A stretch of DNA of 64,000 nt from Nitrosomonadales bacterium. Lineage in GTDB: Bacteria > Pseudomonadota > Gammaproteobacteria > Burkholderiales > Gallionellaceae. The translations under genes were made by a program, and so were the position numbers. The DNA is taken from positions 1 through 64,000 of the forward strand of contig JACRED010000019.1 in the NCBI GenBank assembly GCA_016218415.1, given 5' to 3'. Shown here one piece after another: positions 10,060 through 22,004 of the stretch (positions within the stretch are counted from its first letter, which is position 1; each line of letters opens with the position of its first letter). Below the pieces are notes generated by a model. That model was not told the origin of the DNA and did no database searches. It saw only the letters and a program-made list of their open reading frames with translations.

Positions 10060-12528
10060 CTAGGTTGAAAGTCCTTCAATACGGAGCATAAATTCATCAA
10101 CTGGTATCGGCTTGCTGAAGAAATAACCCTGATAAAGATTGCAGCCCATGTCTTTCAGCAAGGTGAGTTGCGTCATGGTTTCCACGCCTTCCGCAATGAC
10201 TTCCAGGCACAGGTTGCCGGCCATGCCGATAATAGTCTGAATGATAGCCGCATTGCTGGTCTTGATGTCGATGCTGTGCACAAAAGACTGGTCGATCTTC
10301 AATTGGTTGAGCGGCAATTGGGTCAGATAAGCCAGCGATGAATAGCCGGTTCCAAAATCGTCCATCGAGAAACTCACGCCGATATTTTTGAGCGCCTGCA
10401 TCTTGGTGATGGTATCGGCAACATCGTCAAGCACGATGCTCTCGGTCAGTTCGAGCTTCAGGCGTAACGGATTGACGCCGGTTTTATCGAGTATGCCGGC
10501 AACCTGTTCGACGAAATCCGCCTGGCGGAATTGCCGTCCGCTGACATTTACGGCCAGCTGCAAATCGCGGGTAAGCGGGGCGGACTCCCATGCCTTGAGT
10601 TGCTGGCAGGCGTTTTCCAGCACCCAGTTCCCGAGCGGGATAATGAGTCCCGTTTCTTCTGCAAGCGGGATGAATTTCAACGGGGAAATCAGGCCCCGCT
10701 GAGGATGGATCCAGCGCAGCAATACCTCAGCCCCCAGCACTTTTCCGGCCTGATTGACCTGCATCTGGTAGTAAAGCTGGAACTCATGTTTGCGCAACGC
10801 TTCGCGTAACCCGACCTCGAGGATGGCGCGCGCTTCCAGTTCTTCCTGCATCGCGGGATCGAAGAAACGCAGTGCGTTCCTGCCCGACCGCTTGGCTTCA
10901 TACATGGCCGTGTCGGCCTGCTTGAGCAGCTCGTCGAGTTTTTCCCGGTGATCGAAGAACAGCGTGATTCCCATGCTGGACGAGCTATGGAACTCGCTTC
11001 CCTCAAGCATGTAGGGCTGGTTGAGCGCGGCCAGCACTTTTTCTCCCACGCCCTGTGCCTGGATGGCGGCGTGCGCCCTGTCTTCGCTCAGGCTTTCCAG
11101 CAGCAGCACAAACTCATCCCCGCCGAAGCGCGCCAGTGTGTCGCCCTCGCGCACGCATGCCTGCAGCCGCTTGGCCACTTCGATCAGCAGCAGGTCTCCG
11201 ATGCCGTGTCCCCGGGTATCGTTCAGGGTCTTGAAGTTGTCGAGATCGATGAACAAAAGCGCGCCGCCAGTCTGGTTGCGTGTGCTGGTTGCGACTGCCT
11301 GGCGCAGGCGGTCCAGCAACAGGCGCCGGTTGGGCAGTTGACTGAGCGGGTCGTAAAATGCGAGATGGTGGATCTCATTTTCAGCCTGTTTGCGTTCGGT
11401 GAAATCGATGAATGCGCCGACGTAATTCGTGATCTTCCCGTCCTTGTCCACTACGGCGGAGATGTTCAGCCATTCCGGATAAATTTCCCCGTTCTTGCGC
11501 CGGTTCCATATTTCCCCTTGCCAGTTTTTGTCGCGGCGCAGGCTATTCCACATGTTCTGGAAAAACGCATCATCCTGTCGGTCCGACTTGAGCATGGACG
11601 GTTTCCTGCCGATTGCCTCTCCGGCGCTGTAACCGGTCAGCTTGGTGAACGCCTGGTTGACCCGGATGATTACCCCGTTATCATCGGTCACCATCATGCC
11701 CTCATCGGTTTCGAATGCGATGGCGGCAATGCGCAAGGCCGCCTCGCGTTCTTCCTGCTCCGACATCATGCGGTTAAACGCATGGGCCATCGCGGCGATA
11801 TCCTTCGGCCCCTTGGGCTCGACCCGTACATGCGACTCGCCCCTTTCGGCGCGCCCCATGCTGTCCGACAACTGGCCAAGAGGCCGCGTCATGCTGCGGG
11901 TAAGGGTGCGCAGGATCAGCAGCAGAAACAGCAACGCAAAGGAAAATGAGGTGGCCAGATTGGTAATGAAAATATCGGCGGTCATCCGGGTCAGCGCCGC
12001 CTTGCTCATGACCACCGAAACGGAGCCCAGCAGCTCGGGAGTGGCCGCCTCGCCAAAAGGCGATTCTGCGGACGGCTGCGAATAGACGGGCGCGGCAAAA
12101 TGCCATGCAAAACGGCTTTCCGCATCGAGCAGGGCGGCGGCCTGCAATCCGCCGGCATGGTTGGTCTGTTCCACGAGTTCGTCGGGTTTGTGCTTGGGGT
12201 TGCCTCGCGCCAGCAGCACACTCCCGTTGGCATGGCGTATTTCCACACCCACCACGCCGGGGAAAGCCATGGTGGCGCTCACCGCTTCGGCAGCGTTGTC
12301 TGCCGAGGAATAAATCAGCGCCAGGGAACTCTGGCGTGCCAGGCTCTCGGTGATGCGCTGGCCCTGCTCGATCAAATCGTGGCGCACCCGCTCGTTGCCC
12401 TGCCACGATCCCACTATCGAGGAGATCAGTGCCAGAAGCAGGATGCCGAGCGTGACAGTGATGCCGAGCTGCCGCTGGAAGGTCAGTTTTTGGGAAAATG
12501 CGGTGAGTTTTTTCTTCATGGTCGGCAC
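10060..12528 (-). CDS. Membrane GGDEF-EAL cyclic-di-GMP turnover protein (HAMP-PAS)
   Basis: 822 aa. Membrane segment 1 at about 21-42, periplasmic loop to about 184, membrane segment 2 at about 187-208, HAMP 209-260, PAS/PAC about 265-385, GGDEF about 390-555, EAL about 570-815. The cyclase motif is intact (R468-adjacent GGDEF at 469-473) and has the inhibitory RxxD site at 460-463. In the phosphodiesterase domain the signature reads EVL (601-603) instead of EAL, but the metal and catalytic residues (NVSGRQF, LTES, DDFGTGYSSL, KIDQSFV, EVIAEGVET) are kept, so both activities are possible. It starts 3 bp after the binding-protein gene, with which it likely forms a sensor pair. Confidence 0.93.
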   Translation of the reverse strand: MPTMKKKLTAFSQKLTFQRQLGITVTLGILLLALISSIVGSWQGNERVRHDLIEQGQRITESLARQSSLALIYSSADNAAEAVSATMAFPGVVGVEIRHANGSVLLARGNPKHKPDELVEQTNHAGGLQAAALLDAESRFAWHFAAPVYSQPSAESPFGEAATPELLGSVSVVMSKAALTRMTADIFITNLATSFSFALLFLLLILRTLTRSMTRPLGQLSDSMGRAERGESHVRVEPKGPKDIAAMAHAFNRMMSEQEEREAALRIAAIAFETDEGMMVTDDNGVIIRVNQAFTKLTGYSAGEAIGRKPSMLKSDRQDDAFFQNMWNSLRRDKNWQGEIWNRRKNGEIYPEWLNISAVVDKDGKITNYVGAFIDFTERKQAENEIHHLAFYDPLSQLPNRRLLLDRLRQAVATSTRNQTGGALLFIDLDNFKTLNDTRGHGIGDLLLIEVAKRLQACVREGDTLARFGGDEFVLLLESLSEDRAHAAIQAQGVGEKVLAALNQPYMLEGSEFHSSSSMGITLFFDHREKLDELLKQADTAMYEAKRSGRNALRFFDPAMQEELEARAILEVGLREALRKHEFQLYYQMQVNQAGKVLGAEVLLRWIHPQRGLISPLKFIPLAEETGLIIPLGNWVLENACQQLKAWESAPLTRDLQLAVNVSGRQFRQADFVEQVAGILDKTGVNPLRLKLELTESIVLDDVADTITKMQALKNIGVSFSMDDFGTGYSSLAYLTQLPLNQLKIDQSFVHSIDIKTSNAAIIQTIIGMAGNLCLEVIAEGVETMTQLTLLKDMGCNLYQGYFFSKPIPVDEFMLRIEGLST

Positions 12529-13973: not shown

Positions 13974-14002
13974 TTGCACCGGATAATATCAGCCTTTACA
14001 CT
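13974..14002 (+). promoter_or_regulatory. Weak candidate sigma70 promoter for the ThDP operon
   Basis: TTGCAC (13974-13979), 17-bp spacer, TACACT (13997-14002) in the 400-bp divergent region before the ThDP-enzyme gene. Match to consensus is only moderate (3/6 and 4/6). The 204 bases between 13768 and 13973 are open in the binding-protein frame but otherwise show nothing recognisable. Confidence 0.25.
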
Positions 14003-14171
14003 AATCTTGTACTGTTCACTATTGGTTAAAGTGCATGCGCTGCGGAAAATTGCGGTAGCATGATCCTTTGGTTGAAGGCCCCGTAGGCGGCCACAGACCG
14101 ATAGAGCCGATCTTGCAGAATCGCAGACGATAACAATTTAGATGCTGGACTTCACCGGGAGGGGCCCCGCT

Positions 14172-16007
14172 ATGGGCGCTGAAATTTTGCTTGCCGACAA
14201 TCTGATGGACGCGGGAGAGGAGCCGGGGGGGATTGCCGTTGCGCAAACGCTGGAAGTGGCCGATTTGCTGGTTGCCTATCTGGAGCAGATAGGCGTCGAA
14301 TACGTGTTCGGCGTGCCGGGTGGTGCTATCGAGCCGTTGTTCAACGCCATGGCGCGCAGCCAGCGTCGCGGTGGTTTGCGCCTGGTCGTGGCGCGGCACG
14401 AAGCGGGAGCGGCGTTCATGGCCGACGGCTATGCCCGCGAGACCGGACGACTCGGCGTATGTTGCACCACTTCCGGCCCCGGTTCGACCAACATGATCAC
14501 CGGTGTGGCATCCGCACATGACAACAACATCCCTTTGCTGGCGATCAGTGGCCTGCCGGTTCTGTCTTCGTTCGGTAAAGGTGCGCTGCAAGAATCGTCC
14601 AGCGCCGGCGTCAATGCCTTTGCCATGTTTCAACATTGCACCCGTTACAACGCCATGGTGTCCCATCCCAGCCAATTCGAACGCATGTTGGCTAATGCAC
14701 TGATGGCGTCACATCAGGCCCCCGGCGGCCCGACGCACTTGGCGATTCCGCTGGACATCCTGCGCGGCGCGGCACCAAGTCTCACACCGACTTACGATCT
14801 GGCTGCCTTGTTCAAGCACGAACCCATCCTGGTCGACGAGCGCGCGGTACAGCGACTCCTGAAAGAGCTGCGATTATCCTCGCACGTTGTGTTTCTGATC
14901 GGCGCCTCCTGTGGCGAAGCTATCGAAGCGATCATGGCACTGGTCGATCTGACCAAGGCGCGATTCATCACTACGCCCGATGCCAAGGGGTTCATTAATC
15001 CCCTGCATCCGTCTTATTGCGGGGTGTTCGGCTTCGGCGGTCACGCCAGTGCAAACGCGCTGCTGGCCAGCACGCCGGATATCGTGCTGGCATTCGGCAC
15101 GGGCTTCAGTGAATTCGTCAGTGGTGGCTGGTGCGACTCCCTGCTCAATGGCCGTCTTGTACACATCGATAATTCCGAGGAAAACCTGATGCGCTCGCCG
15201 ATGGCCATGCTTCATGTGCATGGCAATATCTATGCGATATGCGAGCGCCTGATCGAGTTACTCATAGCCCTCCCTCCGTCCGATATCGAGCGCATGGGCA
15301 AGCGCCGTGAATATCAAACTGAAGTTACCTTCCAGTCGCCCGAGGGTTACCATTCCGAGGCCACACCGATCAAGCCGCAGCGCCTCATGAAAGTGCTGTC
15401 CGAGCGTTGCCCACCCGATACGCGTTTCCTGGCCGACTCCGGCAATAGCATGGTGTGGACGGTACATTATCTCCAGCCGCGCAATCGGCGCATCGAGAGA
15501 GTGCGACATTATGTCGAAGGACAAATGCCGGAAAAGCGCTCGGGTCTGGCCAACTGGTTGCGCGTGCTGATGGACTTCTGCCCGATGGGCTGGGCCATCG
15601 GCGCTGCGGTTGGTATCGCACGGGGCAATCCAACCTGTCCGGTAGTCTGCATCACGGGAGATGGCGCCTTCCTGATGAGTGGGCAAGAGATGACCGTCGC
15701 GGCAACAGAAGGCCTCACAGTGGTATATGTCATACTCAACGATAGCTCTCTGGGAATGGTCAAGCATGGGCAACGCTTGGCTCAAGCCGAATCCATAGGT
15801 TGCGAATTGCCCCAGGTCGATTACCGCAAACTTGCAGAATCCATGGGAATACCCGGTCATGTCATCTACTCTCCACAAGAGCTGGATGCGCTCGACTTCG
15901 GTGCCATCCTGCAACGCAAGGGGCCGACGCTGCTCGATGTACACATCGACGGCGAAGAAGTGCCGCCCATGATGCTGCGCATGAAAACGCTGGGGACGCT
16001 GAAATGA
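14172..16007 (+). CDS. Thiamine-diphosphate-dependent enzyme, acetolactate-synthase-like
   Basis: 611 aa from the ATG at 14172, chosen because GGGAGGGG (14157-14164) is well placed before it; an ATG at 14142 has no ribosome site. Three domains as in acetolactate synthase/oxalyl-CoA decarboxylase: ThDP-pyrimidine domain (GVEYVFGVPGGAIEPLFNAM, catalytic Glu in VARHEAGAAFMADGYAR), central domain, and ThDP-diphosphate domain with the GDGAFLMSGQE...ND metal motif near the C-terminus followed by SSLGMVKHGQ. It should decarboxylate a 2-oxoacid or join it to a second carbonyl compound; the substrate is unknown. Its stop overlaps the next gene by 4 bases, the first of two citrate-synthase-like genes, and a TonB receptor follows, so a role in making or using an imported carboxylate is inferred. 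It is not next to ilvN or ilvC, arguing against ordinary branched-chain synthesis. Confidence 0.88.
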   Translation: MGAEILLADNLMDAGEEPGGIAVAQTLEVADLLVAYLEQIGVEYVFGVPGGAIEPLFNAMARSQRRGGLRLVVARHEAGAAFMADGYARETGRLGVCCTTSGPGSTNMITGVASAHDNNIPLLAISGLPVLSSFGKGALQESSSAGVNAFAMFQHCTRYNAMVSHPSQFERMLANALMASHQAPGGPTHLAIPLDILRGAAPSLTPTYDLAALFKHEPILVDERAVQRLLKELRLSSHVVFLIGASCGEAIEAIMALVDLTKARFITTPDAKGFINPLHPSYCGVFGFGGHASANALLASTPDIVLAFGTGFSEFVSGGWCDSLLNGRLVHIDNSEENLMRSPMAMLHVHGNIYAICERLIELLIALPPSDIERMGKRREYQTEVTFQSPEGYHSEATPIKPQRLMKVLSERCPPDTRFLADSGNSMVWTVHYLQPRNRRIERVRHYVEGQMPEKRSGLANWLRVLMDFCPMGWAIGAAVGIARGNPTCPVVCITGDGAFLMSGQEMTVAATEGLTVVYVILNDSSLGMVKHGQRLAQAESIGCELPQVDYRKLAESMGIPGHVIYSPQELDALDFGAILQRKGPTLLDVHIDGEEVPPMMLRMKTLGTLK

Positions 16008-16783
16008 GCAAAGAAAAAATCCACACGCGCATCTGGCGCGAAGAGCCGGAGCCAGACAACCCCTTCGCCGCGCGCGCGGCCTATTGCCGTGGCTACGATG
16101 TCTACGGCGAGATGCTGGGAAATGCGCGTTGGGTCGAGATGCTCTACCTGCTCTTCCAGAATGAAGCACCCACGGCGGCACAGGCCGATCTGCTGGAGGC
16201 CCTGGCGCTGGCGCTGGCCAATCCCGGCCCGCGCGATGCCTCGGTACATGCCGCGATGTGCGGCGGCATCACCGGCTCGACCGCCGCTTCCTTGCTGATG
16301 GCGGCGCTGGCGGTGGGCGCGGGTCAACTGGCGGGGGGGCGTGAAGTATTTCTGGCGATGCAAGGCTGGGCCGAATGTGGTGACGATCTCAACTCATGGC
16401 GCAAACGGCTATGCCAGCTGGAAGCTGTTCCGGGCAGCATCTGGCCTGCACTCGAGCATGCGCCGGGCTTCGATCCGCATGGTGTCAGCACGGCCACTGC
16501 GGTGAAGCAAACGCTCTCCTGTCTCGCAAGCTACCGGGTTGGGCAGTACCTGTCGTGGTTGCAGCAAAACCTGCCGGATATGGAAGCTGCGGCAGCTTGC
16601 CCTCTCGCCTTGTCTGGCGTGGCTGCTGCGGCTTTTTCCGACTTGGGTTTTAGCCCGGAACAAGGCGAGATGTTGCACCTGTTATTGCGCCTGCCCGGCG
16701 CGGCGGCCCACGCTTTGGAGCAGCGCCCTATCGGGTATAAGAATTTCCCGTTCGGCACATTGGAACTGGAGCAGCCGATATGA
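16004..16783 (+). CDS. Citrate-synthase/citryl-CoA-lyase-like protein, first copy
   Basis: 259 aa, shorter than citrate synthase (about 430 aa) and near citryl-CoA lyase length. Features of the small citrate-synthase family: an N-terminal helix pair with YDVYGEMLGNARWVEMLYLL, then HAAMCGGITGSTAASLLMAA where citrate synthases carry the first active-site histidine, and a C-terminal GFSPEQGEMLHLLLRLPGAA helix that aligns with the ALGIP...ARTSGW segment. The VDF aspartate expected before S-G is not seen (it reads LALSG), so classical chemistry is uncertain. Four-base overlaps couple it to the genes on both sides. Confidence 0.68.
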   Translation: MSKEKIHTRIWREEPEPDNPFAARAAYCRGYDVYGEMLGNARWVEMLYLLFQNEAPTAAQADLLEALALALANPGPRDASVHAAMCGGITGSTAASLLMAALAVGAGQLAGGREVFLAMQGWAECGDDLNSWRKRLCQLEAVPGSIWPALEHAPGFDPHGVSTATAVKQTLSCLASYRVGQYLSWLQQNLPDMEAAAACPLALSGVAAAAFSDLGFSPEQGEMLHLLLRLPGAAAHALEQRPIGYKNFPFGTLELEQPI

Positions 16784-17613
16784 GCGCGAGCACCAGAGGC
16801 CCGGAACTGCTGCAAGCAAACGCAGGGACGTTGAAAAGCCGCATGGGCACATTCTTCCCCGGCAGTCATGTGATTTTTCGCGGCCATGACCTGCATACCG
16901 ATCTGAAAGACATGGATTGGGTCGAGCTTTATGTGTTCGGCATCACCAATCGCCGCTTTACCAAAGAACAGTTGCGGCTGATGCATTCCATCTGGACCTA
17001 CACCAGCTACCCGGATGTGCGCCTATGGAACAACCGCGTGGCAGCGCTGGCGGGCAGCTCCCGCAGCACCGGTAATCTGGGCATTGCTGCGGCGCTAGCC
17101 GTGTCGGAAGCCTCCATATACGGGCGCGGCATAGATATGCGCGCCATCGATTTCCTGATTCGTACCCGTCGACAAGTGGATGAGGGAGGCGATCTCTCTG
17201 CATGTGTTCGCGAAGAACTGGATACACATCGCAGCATAGGAGGCTATGGCAGGCCGCTGGTCAATGGGGATGAGCGCAACCAGCACATGCTGGCCCTGGC
17301 CAGGGAATTGAACTTGGATAAAGGATCGTATCTGCGCCTCGCTTTTGCTGTTGAGGAAAGCCTGTCTGCCGGTCGCTTGCGCATGAAAATGAACTATGCA
17401 GGCTTGGCCGCAGCCTTGATGGCGGACATTGGTTTTTCGCCGCGCGAGTATTACCTGTTTTTGTTTCCGGCATTTTTGGCGGGAATGCAGCCATGTTTCA
17501 TCGAGGCAGCGGATCGCCCGGAAGGTACGCTGTATCCCGTTTCTTGTGCGGATATCTTGTATGAGGGAAAATCAAAGCGTACTTGGTTAAAGCAAGCTGC
17601 AATTAAGGGATGA
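16780..17613 (+). CDS. Citrate-synthase-like protein, second copy
   Basis: 277 aa, distinct in sequence from the preceding gene. The C-terminal half follows the citrate-synthase pattern: GGYGRPLVNGDERN in place of the GFGHxVY-DPR loop, then LRMKMNYAGLAAALMADIGF in place of NVDFYSG...LGIP, and LFPAFLAGMQPCFIEAADRP in place of the ARTSGWLAH helix. The loop histidine and the catalytic aspartate are both replaced. It may be a catalytically altered partner forming a heteromer with the first copy, or an enzyme with different chemistry. ATGA overlaps with both neighbours. Confidence 0.7.
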   Translation: MSASTRGPELLQANAGTLKSRMGTFFPGSHVIFRGHDLHTDLKDMDWVELYVFGITNRRFTKEQLRLMHSIWTYTSYPDVRLWNNRVAALAGSSRSTGNLGIAAALAVSEASIYGRGIDMRAIDFLIRTRRQVDEGGDLSACVREELDTHRSIGGYGRPLVNGDERNQHMLALARELNLDKGSYLRLAFAVEESLSAGRLRMKMNYAGLAAALMADIGFSPREYYLFLFPAFLAGMQPCFIEAADRPEGTLYPVSCADILYEGKSKRTWLKQAAIKG

Positions 17614-17657
17614 TCCACCGGATAGTCGCTTACTGGATTAATGAAGAAAGGGGAGTC

Positions 17658-19712
17658 ATGCAAACGTTTCACTGTCGAGCTCTTTGCGCCGTTCTGACTT
17701 TCGTCTGTGCCGGTGTTGCTGCCGCACAGTCCACCGAAGAAGAGGATCTGGCGCTGGCCTACGGCGACAAATCTACCGTCAGCATCGCCACCGGAAGCTC
17801 GCAACCCGTCATTCGCGCGCCCTCTGCCTCGACCGTGATCACTGCCCGCGACATAGAAGCCATGGGCGCCACCGATCTGGACCAGGTGCTGGAAAGCGTG
17901 CCGGGTCTGCATGTTTCCATATCCTCCATCACCATGAAGCCAATTTACGAAATTCGCGGCATTGCTGCCAAAGAAAATCCGCATGTGTTGATGCTGGTGA
18001 ACGGCATCCCGATCACCAATGTTTTTGCGGGTGATCGCAGCCAGGTCTGGGGCGGCATGCCACTGGAAAATGTGGCGCGCATCGAAGTGATCCGCGGGCC
18101 GGGATCGGCGCTGTATGGCGCCGATGCATTCTCTGGCGTGATCAATATCATCACCAAAATCGCCTCAGACATCAAAGGCACTGAATACGGTTTGCGCGCA
18201 GGCAGTTTCAATAGCCGCGAGGCATGGGTGCAGCACGGCGGCAAACTGGGCGTGCTCGACGCCGCTTTCTATCTGCGCGCAGGGAATACCGATGGACAGA
18301 AAGGCATCATCCAGAAGGATGCCCAATCTGCTTGGGATGCAGTCTATGGCACGAACGCTTCTCGGGCTCCCGGTTCAGTCAATGCGGAACGCAAGGCAAT
18401 CGATGCGCGCACCGATTTGTATTATGAACAATGGCGCTTCAGGGCGGGTTACCAGAAACGAGAACTCGGTGTTGGCGCGGGTGTCGCGGGAGCATTGGAT
18501 ACTGACGCGCGCGCGCATGCTTCAAGGTTTTATCTGGATATGAGTTATGAGAAAGCGAATTGGGTGCCGAATTGGGATGTATCAGGGGTTGCCGGTTATT
18601 ACGACATCAAGGAATACGGTGATCCCGCCTACACACTGTTTCCGGCAGGAGCTTTTGGCGGAGCCTTTCCCAATGGATTCATCGGAAATCCCGGCCATTC
18701 GGAGCGGCATACCCACGCCAGCATTTCCGCGTTCTACTCCGGCTTTGAACATCATCGGGTGCGTATAGGTACGGGATACCGGGTAGAGGATTTGTACAAA
18801 ACAAATGAGGAAAAAAATTTCGATGCAACTTTTGCCCCGTTGCCCGGCTTGGTGAATGCCGGCCCGAATTTGATCTACATGCTGCCGCACAAACGTAATC
18901 TGTCCTATGTGTTTGTACAGGACGAGTGGAGCCTCGCCAAGGACTGGGCGCTGACGGCCGGCGTGCGGCATGATCGCTACTCTGATTTTGGCGGCACGAC
19001 CAATCCCCGCCTTGCGCTGGTGTGGGATGCGGCGTACAACGTGGTCATCAAGGCCATGCACGGAACAGCTTTCCGCGCCCCCTCCTTCTCTGAACTCTAT
19101 TCCATCAATAACCCGGTGGTTGTCGGCAGTCCCAGTATCAATCCGGAGACTATCAACACCGACGAACTGGCGTTTTCCTGGCAGCCGGTAAGCAAGTTGC
19201 AAACCAACCTGAATTTTTTCCAATACCGCATGCGCAACATCATTTTGCCTGTCGCGGCGAAGTACGGGAATGCCGGCGACCAGACGGGTCGGGGCCTGGA
19301 ATTGGAAGCGACGCTGGATGCCACCGGCAACCTGCGTTTGACCGGAAATTATTCCTTGCAGCATTCAACTGACGGGGCTACCGGCAAGGATGCGGGCATG
19401 GCGCCGCATCGACGTTTATTCGCAAGTGCCGACTGGCGGGTTGTGCCGCTATGGCAACTTGGCGCGACAGTCAATCATGTGGCGGAACGAATGCGCGAAC
19501 CGGGCGACACGCGCGCCAAGATCCCGGACTACACCAGGGCGGATTTGACTCTGCGGCGCGAGAAGTTCGCCGGCGGCTGGGATATGCGCGCCATGGTGAC
19601 CAACCTGTTCAACAGCAGTGCCTATGAACCGACATTCATGTCCGTGGGCATGCAATCCGACTTGCCGCTTCCGGGCCGTGCCTATTACATCCAGATGCAG
19701 CTTAAACTTTGA
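17658..19712 (+). CDS. TonB-dependent outer-membrane receptor
   Basis: 684 aa from the ATG at 17658, which has AAAGGGGAG just upstream and opens a signal peptide ending at AGVAAAQ; an earlier ATG at 17610 overlaps the previous stop but would bury the signal. A possible TonB box (STVSIATG) precedes the plug domain (SASTVITARDIEAMGA to about VARIEVIRGPGSALYGADAF, residues about 45-160), followed by the 22-strand barrel. It resembles the colicin I receptor/catecholate-siderophore group. Such receptors import metal chelates, cobalamin or carbohydrates using TonB-ExbBD. As last gene of the ThDP/citrate-synthase-like operon it points to a metabolite that is taken up, or made, secreted and retrieved. 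Confidence 0.92.
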   Translation: MQTFHCRALCAVLTFVCAGVAAAQSTEEEDLALAYGDKSTVSIATGSSQPVIRAPSASTVITARDIEAMGATDLDQVLESVPGLHVSISSITMKPIYEIRGIAAKENPHVLMLVNGIPITNVFAGDRSQVWGGMPLENVARIEVIRGPGSALYGADAFSGVINIITKIASDIKGTEYGLRAGSFNSREAWVQHGGKLGVLDAAFYLRAGNTDGQKGIIQKDAQSAWDAVYGTNASRAPGSVNAERKAIDARTDLYYEQWRFRAGYQKRELGVGAGVAGALDTDARAHASRFYLDMSYEKANWVPNWDVSGVAGYYDIKEYGDPAYTLFPAGAFGGAFPNGFIGNPGHSERHTHASISAFYSGFEHHRVRIGTGYRVEDLYKTNEEKNFDATFAPLPGLVNAGPNLIYMLPHKRNLSYVFVQDEWSLAKDWALTAGVRHDRYSDFGGTTNPRLALVWDAAYNVVIKAMHGTAFRAPSFSELYSINNPVVVGSPSINPETINTDELAFSWQPVSKLQTNLNFFQYRMRNIILPVAAKYGNAGDQTGRGLELEATLDATGNLRLTGNYSLQHSTDGATGKDAGMAPHRRLFASADWRVVPLWQLGATVNHVAERMREPGDTRAKIPDYTRADLTLRREKFAGGWDMRAMVTNLFNSSAYEPTFMSVGMQSDLPLPGRAYYIQMQLKL

Positions 19713-19790: not shown

Positions 19791-20102
19791 TCAGATTTTA
19801 AGCCGCTCCACCACTCTGCCATTCTTCAAGTGTTCCTCGATGATTTCGTCGAGGTCGCTTTCATCTATATAGGTGTACCAGGTGCCCTCCGGATAAATCA
19901 CGATCACCGGGCCGTCGTCGCAGCGATCCATGCACCCGGCGGAGTTGATGCGGATGTTGTTCTGCTGTTTGGAAATCCCGAGCGCCTTGACCTTGTTCTT
20001 CACGTAATCTCGTGCCTGTTGTGCACGGTGGTCATTGCAGCAGGCGCTGCCGTCCTCGCGCTGGTTGGTGCAGAAAAACACATGCTTGTCGTAATAACTC
20101 AT
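19791..20102 (-). CDS. Thioredoxin-like [2Fe-2S] ferredoxin
   Basis: 103 aa. Matches the COG3411 group: HVFFCTNQREDGSACC at the N-terminus and INSAGCMDRCDDGPVIVIYPEG in the C-terminal half; four cysteines (C11, one of C21/C22, C57, C61) can hold a 2Fe-2S cluster in a thioredoxin fold. The partner is unknown. The ATG is at 20102. It is convergent with the TonB receptor; 78 bp between them show no clear terminator. Confidence 0.9.
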   Translation of the reverse strand: MSYYDKHVFFCTNQREDGSACCNDHRAQQARDYVKNKVKALGISKQQNNIRINSAGCMDRCDDGPVIVIYPEGTWYTYIDESDLDEIIEEHLKNGRVVERLKI

Positions 20103-20164
20103 GAAGGCTCCAGTTGAATGGTGCGGGATTATTTCATTATTCAGTCATATGGCGAAATATTGCA

Positions 20165-20189
20165 GGGGCGCGATGAATCGCGCCCCTAC
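20165..20189. repeat. Palindrome, variant of the GTAGGGGC family
   Basis: GGGGCGCGAT GA ATCGCGCCCC (20165-20186) followed by TAC. Same ends (GGGGC...GCCCCTAC) as the two identical 28-bp palindromes at 23266 and 56637, but with a different core. It sits in the 116-bp gap between the VanZ-like gene and the ferredoxin gene, both on the minus strand. Confidence 0.8.
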
Positions 20190-20218
20190 CGGGTTTTGTT
20201 CGTTGAAATGGAATGGGG

Positions 20219-21283
20219 TCATATCTTTCGGATTCGCGACAGGTGGAATATCAGCAGCAGCGGGAAGCACAGGGAGATGGTCTGCGCGAGGCCGTTGTAG
20301 TTGAGCAGATGGCCGTAGTGCCAGTGATAGACAGAGGTCGCGGCGGAGGGAGCGTTGCTGTCCAGCACGAAATTGATGATGACGAAGTAGGTCGCGGCCA
20401 TCAGCGTGCCAAAGGCCAGCATTGCAATGCTGGACAGCCACCGTAACGCGAGCAGCAGCAACATACCCGCTATGATTCCCAGCATGGCTTCGCTGTTGAC
20501 CCATAACAGCAATGCCCAGGATTTCAGCAGCACGGCGGCAGCGATGAATTTGGCCAGCGCCACCACACTTAACACGACCAGCGATGCGGTGGCGGCATTG
20601 CGCGGAATGCGCAGCAGGGTCAGCATCAGCGTGCCCAGCATCAACAGGTTCAGCGTGACCGCGCCGCTTTCCCACCAGTCGAACGGCACCGGCGGCAGTT
20701 TCGCGAAAGGCTGTCGCGCCACCTCGCTGATGAATACATTGCCCAGCATCGGCAGCGACGGGTTGATCTGGCCGAACATCCACAGCGCGAGCAAGGCCAG
20801 GCCAAAATCGATCTCCTTGCCGTGATGGAACAGGCTGCTGCGCCAGTGTGTCAGACGGGCGAGCAGCCATGGCCGCGAGGTGATGCTCACCGCCAACAAC
20901 GCGCCGATCAGCGTGCCCAGGCTGTTGGATAACAGGTCGGTGTTCGAACTGTTGCGCGACGGCAGATACATTTGCAGGTATTCCATGCCGGCCGACAGCA
21001 ATACGCCGGCACACACGCCGAAGAACACACTGGCCGCCGCGCCATGCCGCGCGCGCAAAGTCAGCACGACCAGAAAGCCCAGGGGCAGATAGGACAACAG
21101 ATTCACGATCGCATCGAACGCGGTATAGGTGAATCCGAGATGGAGCACCTCGCCGAATTCCAGCCCCTGATTGCGCCAGCCGGCAAATGGTGACAAGCTG
21201 GCGTACACGATGAACAGCGCGTAGCCTGCCGTCAGCCAGGTGCGCAGCCTTGCGTGAGTCTGGATGGGATATGGATTGCTCAT
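20219..21283 (-). CDS. VanZ-like family membrane protein
   Basis: 354 aa from the ATG at 21283; an upstream TTG (21316) is less likely. The N-terminal 130 residues form a VanZ-like domain (YALFIVYASLSPFAGWRN, FDAIVNLLSYLPLGFLVV, GMEYLQMYLPSRNSSNTDLL with the acidic N-TDLLSNSLG motif). The C-terminal half adds about five further hydrophobic segments of unknown function. VanZ is named for mild teicoplanin resistance, but most homologs have no proven role. Divergent from the SRPBCC gene. Confidence 0.82.
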   Translation of the reverse strand: MSNPYPIQTHARLRTWLTAGYALFIVYASLSPFAGWRNQGLEFGEVLHLGFTYTAFDAIVNLLSYLPLGFLVVLTLRARHGAAASVFFGVCAGVLLSAGMEYLQMYLPSRNSSNTDLLSNSLGTLIGALLAVSITSRPWLLARLTHWRSSLFHHGKEIDFGLALLALWMFGQINPSLPMLGNVFISEVARQPFAKLPPVPFDWWESGAVTLNLLMLGTLMLTLLRIPRNAATASLVVLSVVALAKFIAAAVLLKSWALLLWVNSEAMLGIIAGMLLLLALRWLSSIAMLAFGTLMAATYFVIINFVLDSNAPSAATSVYHWHYGHLLNYNGLAQTISLCFPLLLIFHLSRIRKI

Positions 21284-21359
21284 GGCCGAATGGGTGTGTC
21301 TCCAACAGTCGCGCAAGTTTATCCTATCCGCTGTCCGTGCAACCGGGGAGGGAAAGCAA

Positions 21360-22004
21360 ATGGCCTTAATCGAACCACGCCGTCACCTGTTGCTGCTGCT
21401 CTTGCTCTGTTGCGATGCCGACGCGCAGGCGCCTGATAAGATGCCCGCGTTTGAGAAGCCGGCACCAGTGGTGAATATCAAGCGGCAGGGCTCCAGTTTC
21501 ATCGTTCATGCCGCGGTCATACTGCCCGTGACCCGCTGCGAGGCCTATGCGCTGCTGACCGATTACGCCAGCCAGCCGTCTTACATTCCCGGCATGCTGG
21601 AGATCGGCGTCGAGCGGATATCGGAGACGGTCGTGAAAGTCCGCCAGCTGGTTGAGGCGCATGTGCTGTTCTTCAGCATTGATGTGGAGATCGTGCTGGT
21701 GATGGAAGAGATGCCCGGCAGATACATCACCTTCAGGCAGACCGAAGGAGACTTGGAGTCGTACAGCGGCATATGGACGCTGCTGGACGCGGCGGAAGGA
21801 ACGAAGCTGACCTACGATGCGGAGCTGCTATTCGCCGGTTATGTGCCGGGGTTCCTCGGCAAGATGGTGCTGGAAGACGAGTCGGCTAAGCGCTTCGAGG
21901 CGGTCGCCAAAGAGGCGGGCGCGCGCAAGGCCGGCGGACGGCTGAGTTGCAACTCAGCGCAGTCTGAAAATGACGCCCCGGTCAGCAGGTATACTGCACG
22001 CTGA
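21360..22004 (+). CDS. Secreted SRPBCC/START-like (polyketide cyclase type) protein
   Basis: 214 aa from the ATG at 21360, preceded by GGGGAGGGA (21345-21353); a longer reading would overlap the divergent VanZ gene. A leucine-rich signal peptide (HLLLLLLLCCDADAQA) is followed by a helix-grip domain: AYALLTDYASQPSYIPGMLEI, GDLESYSGIWTLL, LTYDAELLFAGYVPGFLGKM. This resembles the ribosome association toxin RatA/coenzyme-Q-binding family but exported, so it may bind a hydrophobic ligand in the periplasm. Function unknown. Confidence 0.75.
   Translation: MALIEPRRHLLLLLLLCCDADAQAPDKMPAFEKPAPVVNIKRQGSSFIVHAAVILPVTRCEAYALLTDYASQPSYIPGMLEIGVERISETVVKVRQLVEAHVLFFSIDVEIVLVMEEMPGRYITFRQTEGDLESYSGIWTLLDAAEGTKLTYDAELLFAGYVPGFLGKMVLEDESAKRFEAVAKEAGARKAGGRLSCNSAQSENDAPVSRYTAR

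What the first reader, a model, noticed from the sequence alone, without database searches (positions are those of the whole stretch)
14172..19712. ThDP enzyme + two citrate-synthase-like proteins + TonB receptor: possible new carboxylate or metallophore system
Four genes are locked together by ATGA overlaps at 16004, 16780 and 17610. A carboligase/decarboxylase-type ThDP enzyme could make a 2-oxo or hydroxy-carboxylate, two different citrate-synthase-fold proteins could extend or cleave an acyl-CoA adduct, and the TonB receptor could import the product with a metal. Both citrate-synthase-like proteins lack the expected Asp and one lacks the loop His, so they may work as a heteromer with new chemistry. 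No ilvN, NIS synthetase or NRPS is present, so it does not fit known siderophore or branched-chain pathways. Whether this exact set is already described elsewhere cannot be told from the sequence.
Basis: partly seen in the sequence, partly recalled or inferred. Interest (0 to 1): 0.78.

Follow-up and report, generated by a model that had tools for sequence, protein, structure and literature searches.

The report
Make, import and sense gene locus
Six neighbouring genes kept together in many bacteria pair three enzyme-like proteins, predicted to build a small molecule, with a receptor and a sensor that would likely bring it back in and report it, and some relatives keep only the receiver half.

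Summary
The gene set is real, conserved and larger than reported. A ThDP enzyme and two citrate-synthase-like proteins (CS1, CS2) lie between a TonB receptor and a divergent pair: a periplasmic binding protein (SBP, PF04392) and a GGDEF/EAL sensor. All six recur in 22 of 30 loci compared. Of 150 same-family genomes, 35 have full CS2; all 35 have CS1 and 34 have the SBP. The ThDP enzyme fails the acetolactate-synthase cut-off; its nearest solved relatives are alpha-hydroxy-beta-keto-acid synthases. CS1 and CS2 are citryl-CoA-lyase relatives without the catalytic His/His/Asp in this window; CS2 carries a nearly invariant Tyr/Arg/(Ala or Gly) instead. Seven genomes have SBP, sensor and TonB but no match to the three enzymes. 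At one chromosomal slot the enzyme cassette is present, reduced to ThDP, or absent. I read this as a make, import and sense system for a shared small molecule, more signal-like than metallophore. Substrates, product and signalling are inferred. Against a strictly dedicated signal: one producer and one receiver-only locus share SBPs 92% and sensors 91% identical, with TonB only 52%.

The parts
10060..12528 (-). HAMP-PAS-GGDEF-EAL sensor with an N-terminal region of about 270 residues shared by sensors with other outputs
   Evidence: Pfam domains; N-terminal 270 residues matched in 24 other ORFs of the fetched loci, including histidine kinases of L066 and L024
12532..13968 (-). Periplasmic binding protein of family PF04392 (SBP); true start uncertain, probably inside this ORF
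   Evidence: PF04392 36.1 bits, cut-off 25.9; conserved neighbour
13974..14002 (+). Conserved upstream element, promoter-like (TTGCAC, 17 bases, TACACT); core 13983-14002
   Evidence: Alignment; core at 1 mismatch here and at up to 5 mismatches at the matching place in 9 of 10 other divergent producers, 5 of 9 receiver-only and 2 of 2 ThDP-only loci; not flagged by the generic promoter scan
14172..16007 (+). ThDP enzyme, nearest solved relatives HKA synthases; an in-frame ATG also at 14142
   Evidence: Pfam, NCBIfam, PDB sequences, fold
16004..16783 (+). CS1, citrate-synthase-like protein without the catalytic His/His/Asp
   Evidence: Profile match to citryl-CoA lyase 6hxp E 6.7e-21; residues
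16780..17613 (+). CS2, citrate-synthase-like protein with Tyr/Arg/Ala at the three positions
   Evidence: Profile match to 6hxp E 3.8e-15; fold; residues
17658..19712 (+). TonB-dependent receptor; ORF opens at 17610 but 17658 is the likelier start
   Evidence: Plug and barrel Pfam domains; start

Best explanation
The locus is a conserved unit of six neighbouring genes whose three enzyme-like proteins likely build a small compound derived from a hydroxy-keto acid, which the TonB receptor is predicted to import and the binding protein with its GGDEF/EAL sensor would report as a change in c-di-GMP. Inferred chemistry: the ThDP enzyme joins two 2-oxo acids into an alpha-hydroxy-beta-keto acid, as its nearest characterised relatives do. 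The CS1/CS2 pair then acts on it as a composite, probably CoA-dependent, site with chemistry other than citrate synthase's, in the place that CybF holds in furanolide pathways. Inferred biology: the product is released and shared; producers carry the enzyme cassette, receiver-only relatives keep receptor, binding protein and sensor. Shown here: gene linkage, co-occurrence, loss of the citrate-synthase residues, different sensor outputs on one sensor region, and presence, reduction or absence of the cassette at one chromosomal slot. Not shown: any substrate, product, heteromer or signalling event.
For: All six genes in 22 of 30 loci. CS2 with CS1 in 35 of 35, with ThDP in 33 of 35 and with SBP in 34 of 35 genomes, among 150. 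Nearest PDB sequences of the ThDP enzyme are BbmA and CsmA (264 and 233 bits; acetolactate synthase I 188); top seven fold matches are titled ThDP-dependent HKA synthase. [quoted passage not shown] Tailoring-type genes in relatives point to biosynthesis: SDR in 13 of 24 named loci, a carbamoyltransferase in L066, a sulfotransferase in L098 and its 91% relative in L097. Receiver-only loci: 7 genomes plus 2 second copies. One slot in four states. Shared upstream element. Sensor region joined to GGDEF/EAL or to histidine kinase.
Against: SBP and sensor do not follow the cassette: L047 (producer) and L093 (receiver-only) share SBPs 92% and sensors 91% identical while TonB is 52%. L026-L029 and L056 have the enzymes but no TonB or SBP match in the stretch held. 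L097 and L098 have ThDP without CS1 or CS2. No exporter gene was recognised between the six genes. The partial correlations come from 22 related loci and show no link of ThDP to TonB (-0.10) or sensor (0.00). The CS2 model is of middling confidence, pLDDT 66. CS1 was not modelled and no complex was predicted.
Confidence: 0.5

Rival explanations
1. Metallophore system: the enzymes make a small hydroxy-carboxylate chelator, the TonB receptor imports its metal complex, and the SBP and sensor report the chelate. Receiver-only strains pirate it.
For: TonB receptor beside biosynthesis-type enzymes; receiver-only loci are also what pirates of a chelator would look like; several carriers are named as Gallionella and Sideroxydans, which are known as iron oxidisers (recalled).
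Against: No Fur-box match above shuffles in the window (L048 alone reaches 14 of 19). Receptor below the siderophore receptor cut-off, 142.5 against 223.5 bits. A GGDEF/EAL or kinase sensor with its own binding protein is not a usual part of such clusters (recalled).
Confidence: 0.22
2. Catabolic system: the TonB receptor imports an environmental compound, the SBP and sensor detect it, and the ThDP enzyme with CS1/CS2 (and SDR) cleave it.
For: ThDP lyases and citryl-CoA lyase relatives can run in the cleaving direction (recalled); SDR in 13 of 24 named loci; SBP and sensor kept without the enzymes.
Against: The CS catalytic residues are gone. Nine receiver-only loci keep the TonB receptor without the enzymes. 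Carbamoyltransferase and sulfotransferase genes in some loci fit synthesis better. Nearest solved ThDP relatives are carboligases.
Confidence: 0.18
3. Two units that only travel together: an enzyme-TonB cassette inserted beside an unrelated, general SBP-sensor pair.
For: SBP and sensor stay fixed while TonB and cassette change between L047 and L093. The genome has two other PF04392 proteins beside sensor-like sequence. Partial correlations group ThDP-CS1-CS2 apart from TonB-SBP-sensor.
Against: The same six genes occur in other orders in distant lineages. SBP is present in 34 of 35 genomes with CS2 and in 15 of 115 without. TonB stays with SBP and sensor when the enzymes are absent.
Confidence: 0.1

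Closest known systems
ThDP-dependent alpha-hydroxy-beta-keto acid (HKA) synthases: CybE (cyanobacterin), CsmA, BbmA (written BpmA in PMC12395478)
   Same: Nearest solved sequences and folds to the ThDP enzyme; in the cyb pathway the product goes to a CoA-dependent carbon-carbon-bond-forming partner (passages of PMC12395478 and PMC13288894).
   Different: Only 28% identical in the fold alignment. The partner CybF is described as a 3-oxoacyl-ACP synthase (PMC8777810); here the neighbours are two citrate-synthase-like proteins. Linked to a TonB receptor and sensor.
Citryl-CoA lyase and ATP-citrate lyase C-terminal module (6hxp and relatives)
   Same: Fold and profile similarity of CS1 and CS2.
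   Different: NCBIfam cut-offs missed by far, catalytic His/His/Asp lost, two distinct paralogues side by side.
Binding-protein sensing pairs LuxP/LuxQ (AI-2) and NspS/MbaA (recalled, not compared)
   Same: A periplasmic binding protein beside a membrane sensor with kinase or GGDEF/EAL output; in AI-2 sensing the signal is self-made (recalled).
   Different: Here the making enzymes and a TonB receptor sit in the same locus. No sequence relationship to LuxP or NspS was tested.

Membership tests
Acetolactate (acetohydroxyacid) synthase | Score above the curated cut-off of the biosynthetic large-subunit model | tested here: not met
   TIGR00118 276.3 bits, cut-off 538.35; the other 24 models listed of 58 are also below theirs
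Acetolactate (acetohydroxyacid) synthase | Regulatory subunit ilvN next to it | tested here: not met
   The neighbours are CS1 and the divergent SBP; an ilvN-like ORF, read by eye, lies beside another ilvB-like gene on contig C39
HKA synthase (CybE/CsmA/BbmA type) | Closer to known HKA synthases than to acetolactate synthases among solved structures | tested here: met
   264 and 233 bits against 188; top seven fold matches. No tree was built
HKA synthase (CybE/CsmA/BbmA type) | Forms an alpha-hydroxy-beta-keto acid from two 2-oxo acids | not testable with these tools
   Needs an enzyme assay
Furanolide-type pathway | CybF-type 3-oxoacyl-ACP synthase beside the ThDP enzyme | tested here: not met
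   The Pfam matches of the seven window proteins scanned, ThDP, CS1, CS2, TonB, SBP, sensor and 21264-22004, hold none; the rest of the genome was not searched
Citrate synthase / citryl-CoA lyase | Fold | tested here: met
Citrate synthase / citryl-CoA lyase | Curated family cut-offs | tested here: not met
   PF00285 20 bits for CS1 (cut-off 27), none for CS2; citryl-CoA lyase 50.6 and 44.8 bits, cut-off 261
Citrate synthase / citryl-CoA lyase | Catalytic His, His, Asp (residues recalled) | tested here: not met
   CS2 0 of 153 at any of the three positions; CS1 4, 1 and 0 of 33
Siderophore system | TonB receptor above the siderophore receptor cut-off | tested here: not met
   TIGR01783 142.5 bits, cut-off 223.5
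Siderophore system | Fur-controlled | tested here: inconclusive
   12 of 19 in the window, shuffle maximum 13; L048 14. A consensus match is a weak test
Siderophore system | Product binds metal | not testable with these tools
   Product unknown
Self-signal sensing (AI-2 type) | Making enzymes, binding protein and sensor genetically linked | tested here: met
   22 of 30 loci with all six; linkage only
Self-signal sensing (AI-2 type) | Self-made ligand bound by the SBP alters the sensor | not testable with these tools
   Needs binding and mutant tests

The most novel reading that the evidence does not exclude
A new class of bacterial chemical communication: a ThDP carboligase and a heteromer of two citrate-synthase-fold proteins with a Tyr/Arg/Ala site make a diffusible signal derived from a hydroxy-keto acid; a TonB receptor retrieves it and an SBP-gated sensor writes it into c-di-GMP or phosphorelay output; producer, partial-producer and eavesdropper alleles replace each other at one chromosomal slot.
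Probability: 0.3. Interest if true: 0.9.

Novelty: new variant of a known kind. Interest (0 to 1): 0.72.

Why it matters
If right, it gives environmental Beta- and Gammaproteobacteria, among them Gallionella and Sideroxydans relatives, Methylomonas and Dechloromonas, a self-made small molecule tied to c-di-GMP output, with natural producer, ThDP-only and receiver-only genotypes that make the idea directly testable. It would also be a use of the citrate-synthase fold without its catalytic residues, possibly standing in for the CybF-type partner that follows HKA synthases elsewhere. Whatever the ligand, many proteins now named citryl-CoA lyase or hypothetical (2,294 matches to CS2 at E 0.001 or better, 120 listed) may be misnamed.

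Tried and rejected
Standard acetolactate synthase: rejected on the cut-off and on a separate ilvB-like gene. Standard citrate synthase: the genome has a full one on contig C8. Known cobalamin, heme or siderophore receptor: below the cut-offs of the 25 models listed of 33. Fur control: no match above shuffles in the window, 14 of 19 in L048. Plasmid-borne: no match in PLSDB. CybF as a citrate-synthase-fold enzyme: I suspected this; PMC8777810 calls it a 3-oxoacyl-ACP synthase. Generic promoter scan: no more sites than shuffles, and it does not flag the conserved element, whose first hexamer is weak.

Papers: no paper describing this gene set was found in searches. Searches looked for BbmA, CsmA, HKA synthases or the cyanobacterin enzymes. 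Only passages were seen of PMC12395478, PMC13307353, PMC8777810 and PMC13288894. The Nature Chemistry 2025 paper on the two ThDP enzymes was seen only in a reference list.

Structure: the CS2 model is of middling confidence. CS1 was not modelled, and no complex could be predicted. No family tree was built.
Full report
What is in the window. Two of the three ATGA overlaps stand, at 16004 and 16780. The one at 17610 is probably chance: the receptor more likely starts at 17658, behind AGGGGAG and ahead of a signal-peptide-like stretch (by eye), and most close homologues align only from about residue 11-17. Upstream and divergent lie a PF04392 binding protein and a HAMP-PAS-GGDEF-EAL protein. The genome is a 2.5 Mb draft, 86% complete. 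Its nearest named relatives for CS2 are Gallionella and Gallionellaceae records.

Conservation of the unit. A scan of genome contigs with CS2 gave 24 named loci: Gallionella, Sideroxydans, Sideroxyarcus, Herbaspirillum, Noviherbaspirillum, Janthinobacterium, Methylomonas, Dechloromonas, Thiogranum and unnamed Beta- and Gammaproteobacteria. In four of them the order is TonB-CS1-CS2-ThDP-SBP-sensor; the sensor of L024 is a histidine kinase. Asking for at least half coverage (not for the SBP), all six are present in 22 of 30 loci compared: these 29 and the window. Of the eight others, seven are on short contigs or cut by a contig end; L056 has no TonB or SBP match in 20.8 kb. Four more loci (L026-L029), not among the 30, have ThDP-CS1-CS2 without TonB or SBP matches. 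In L026 the neighbours are a protein kinase-AAA-GAF-histidine kinase protein, a LuxR-type response regulator and an FkbH-type protein. An SDR match is found in 13 of 24 named loci, in 11 of them directly upstream of CS1.

Co-occurrence. In the same 150 genomes of the family the searches matched CS2 in 37, CS1 in 39, ThDP (E 1e-100 or better) in 42 and the SBP in 49. I dropped two fragmentary or weak CS2 genomes (G470, G490) and one weak CS1 (G424), leaving 35 and 38. Joint counts: CS2 and CS1 35 of 35, CS2 and ThDP 33 of 35 (same contig in all 33), CS2 and SBP 34 of 35 (same contig in 30); 99 genomes have none of the four. The genomes are related, so the Fisher values printed there are not probabilities. 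In a wider sample of the phylum 18 of 398 genomes match CS2, 10 of them, the window's own included, at E 1e-25 or better.

Receiver-only loci. Seven genomes have the SBP but none of ThDP, CS1 or CS2. In their loci (L090-L096) the SBP lies beside sensor sequence and a TonB receptor; in L091 the sensor gene, and in L096 the TonB match, is cut by the contig end, and in L095 only the N-terminal sensor part matched. Four of these genomes are listed as 94-99% complete. Two producer genomes, G438 and G484, also carry a second, enzyme-free copy (L102, L101). In several genomes the unit sits between folD-like and EamA-like genes, named by eye. There the slot holds ThDP-CS1-CS2 (L045, L047), ThDP-SDR-CS1-CS2 (L048, L054), ThDP alone with a sulfotransferase gene beyond TonB (L098), or no enzyme (L090, L093; L102 shares the neighbouring upstream marker and the EamA marker). 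A 20-base element taken from the producer alignment lies, with at most 5 mismatches, at the matching intergenic place in 10 of 11 divergent producers (from which it was derived), 5 of 9 receiver-only loci and 2 of 2 ThDP-only loci, against 0.4 expected per shuffled 64 kb. It was not found at that place in L057, L093, L095, L096 or L101, nor in the loci with other gene order. So the cassette is gained or lost next to a receptor and sensor that persist, in part behind one control element.

Results against a dedicated signal. L047 (producer) and L093 (receiver-only) have SBPs 92% and sensors 91% identical, but TonB receptors only 52% identical. Within the group of close loci the TonB type follows the CS pair better: type A in the eight close producers compared, in L049 and in receivers L090, L091, L092 and L102; type B in L093-L095, L097, L098 and L101, none of which holds CS1 or CS2. 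But the receptor of producer L064 (Dechloromonas) is slightly closer to type B (51-55%) than to type A (48-50%). The SBP and sensor may read a feature shared by several ligands.

The ThDP enzyme. It keeps the activating Glu and the GDG...ND motif (recalled motifs, read). It scores half the cut-off for acetolactate synthase, and the genome has an ilvB-like gene elsewhere, beside ORFs read by eye as ilvN and ilvC. Its nearest solved relatives are BbmA and CsmA, titled ThDP-dependent HKA synthases. [quoted passage not shown] In the cyanobacterin pathway the acid goes to CybF and a CoA thioester; CybF is described as a 3-oxoacyl-ACP synthase. Here the CS pair stands in the neighbouring place; that analogy is inference. 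The family holds two ThDP types: 11 genomes besides the window's at 71-82% to the window's enzyme, the other 30 at 53-59%, so the enzyme can be exchanged, perhaps with its substrates.

The CS pair. CS1 and CS2 are related to each other (hhalign probability 99.1) and to citryl-CoA lyase; neither reaches the family cut-offs. At the positions aligned with the catalytic His, His and Asp, CS2 has Tyr in 149, Arg in 153 and Ala or Gly in 149 of 153 sequences; CS1 has a first His in 4, a loop His in 1 and the Asp in none of 33 (the 153 include proteins reached by two routes). Strict conservation of the replacements argues against decay. Partial correlations of pairwise distances link ThDP to CS1 (0.60), CS1 to CS2 (0.49), TonB to sensor (0.53) and SBP to sensor (0.45); CS2 to TonB is 0.34 and CS2 to sensor -0.28. 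The loci are related, so this is suggestive only. AlphaFold2 gives mean pLDDT 66 for CS2 and 75 for the ThDP enzyme; the matches of the CS2 model to citryl-CoA lyase support the fold, not a function.

Verdict. The best reading is a make, import and sense locus for a shared small molecule (0.5), ahead of a metallophore system (0.22), a catabolic one (0.18) and two units that only travel together (0.1).

Noticed in passing
L056:6399-10864: A Rhodocyclales bin has CS1-CS2-CS1-CS2-CS2 in a row behind ThDP and SDR, with no TonB or SBP match in the 20.8 kb held.
   Followed up: no
L066:467-19544: In Thiogranum the unit follows genes read by eye as chemotaxis genes (MCP, CheR, CheD, CheB) and includes an SDR, a NodU-type carbamoyltransferase, the SBP, an sCache-type histidine kinase and a response-regulator-like gene.
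   Followed up: partly
L073:3847-8861 and L074:7389-9670: The two other PF04392 proteins of the window's genome also sit beside sensor-like sequence: a PAS-histidine-kinase ORF read by eye in L073 and a match to the GGDEF/EAL protein in L074, which hints at a general family of binding-protein and sensor pairs.
   Followed up: partly
L097:7969-13493 and L098:10811-16287: ThDP and TonB with a sulfotransferase gene but no CS1 or CS2; the sulfotransferases are 91% identical. The ThDP product may be sulfated here instead.
   Followed up: partly
G470, contig C2:69629-71540: A 57-residue match to the C-terminal end of CS2 lies right beside an intact ThDP match, and CS1 is not matched in this genome: a likely remnant of a lost CS pair.
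   Followed up: no
G445, contig C127:2556-6016: A ThDP enzyme 81% identical to the window's sits beside CS1 and CS2 of a distant type (37% and 29%), so ThDP and CS types can be recombined.
   Followed up: no
window 19791-22004: Downstream neighbours are a small ferredoxin-like ORF (by eye), a VanZ-family protein and a polyketide-cyclase/START-like protein; they were not part of the recurring clusters.
   Followed up: no
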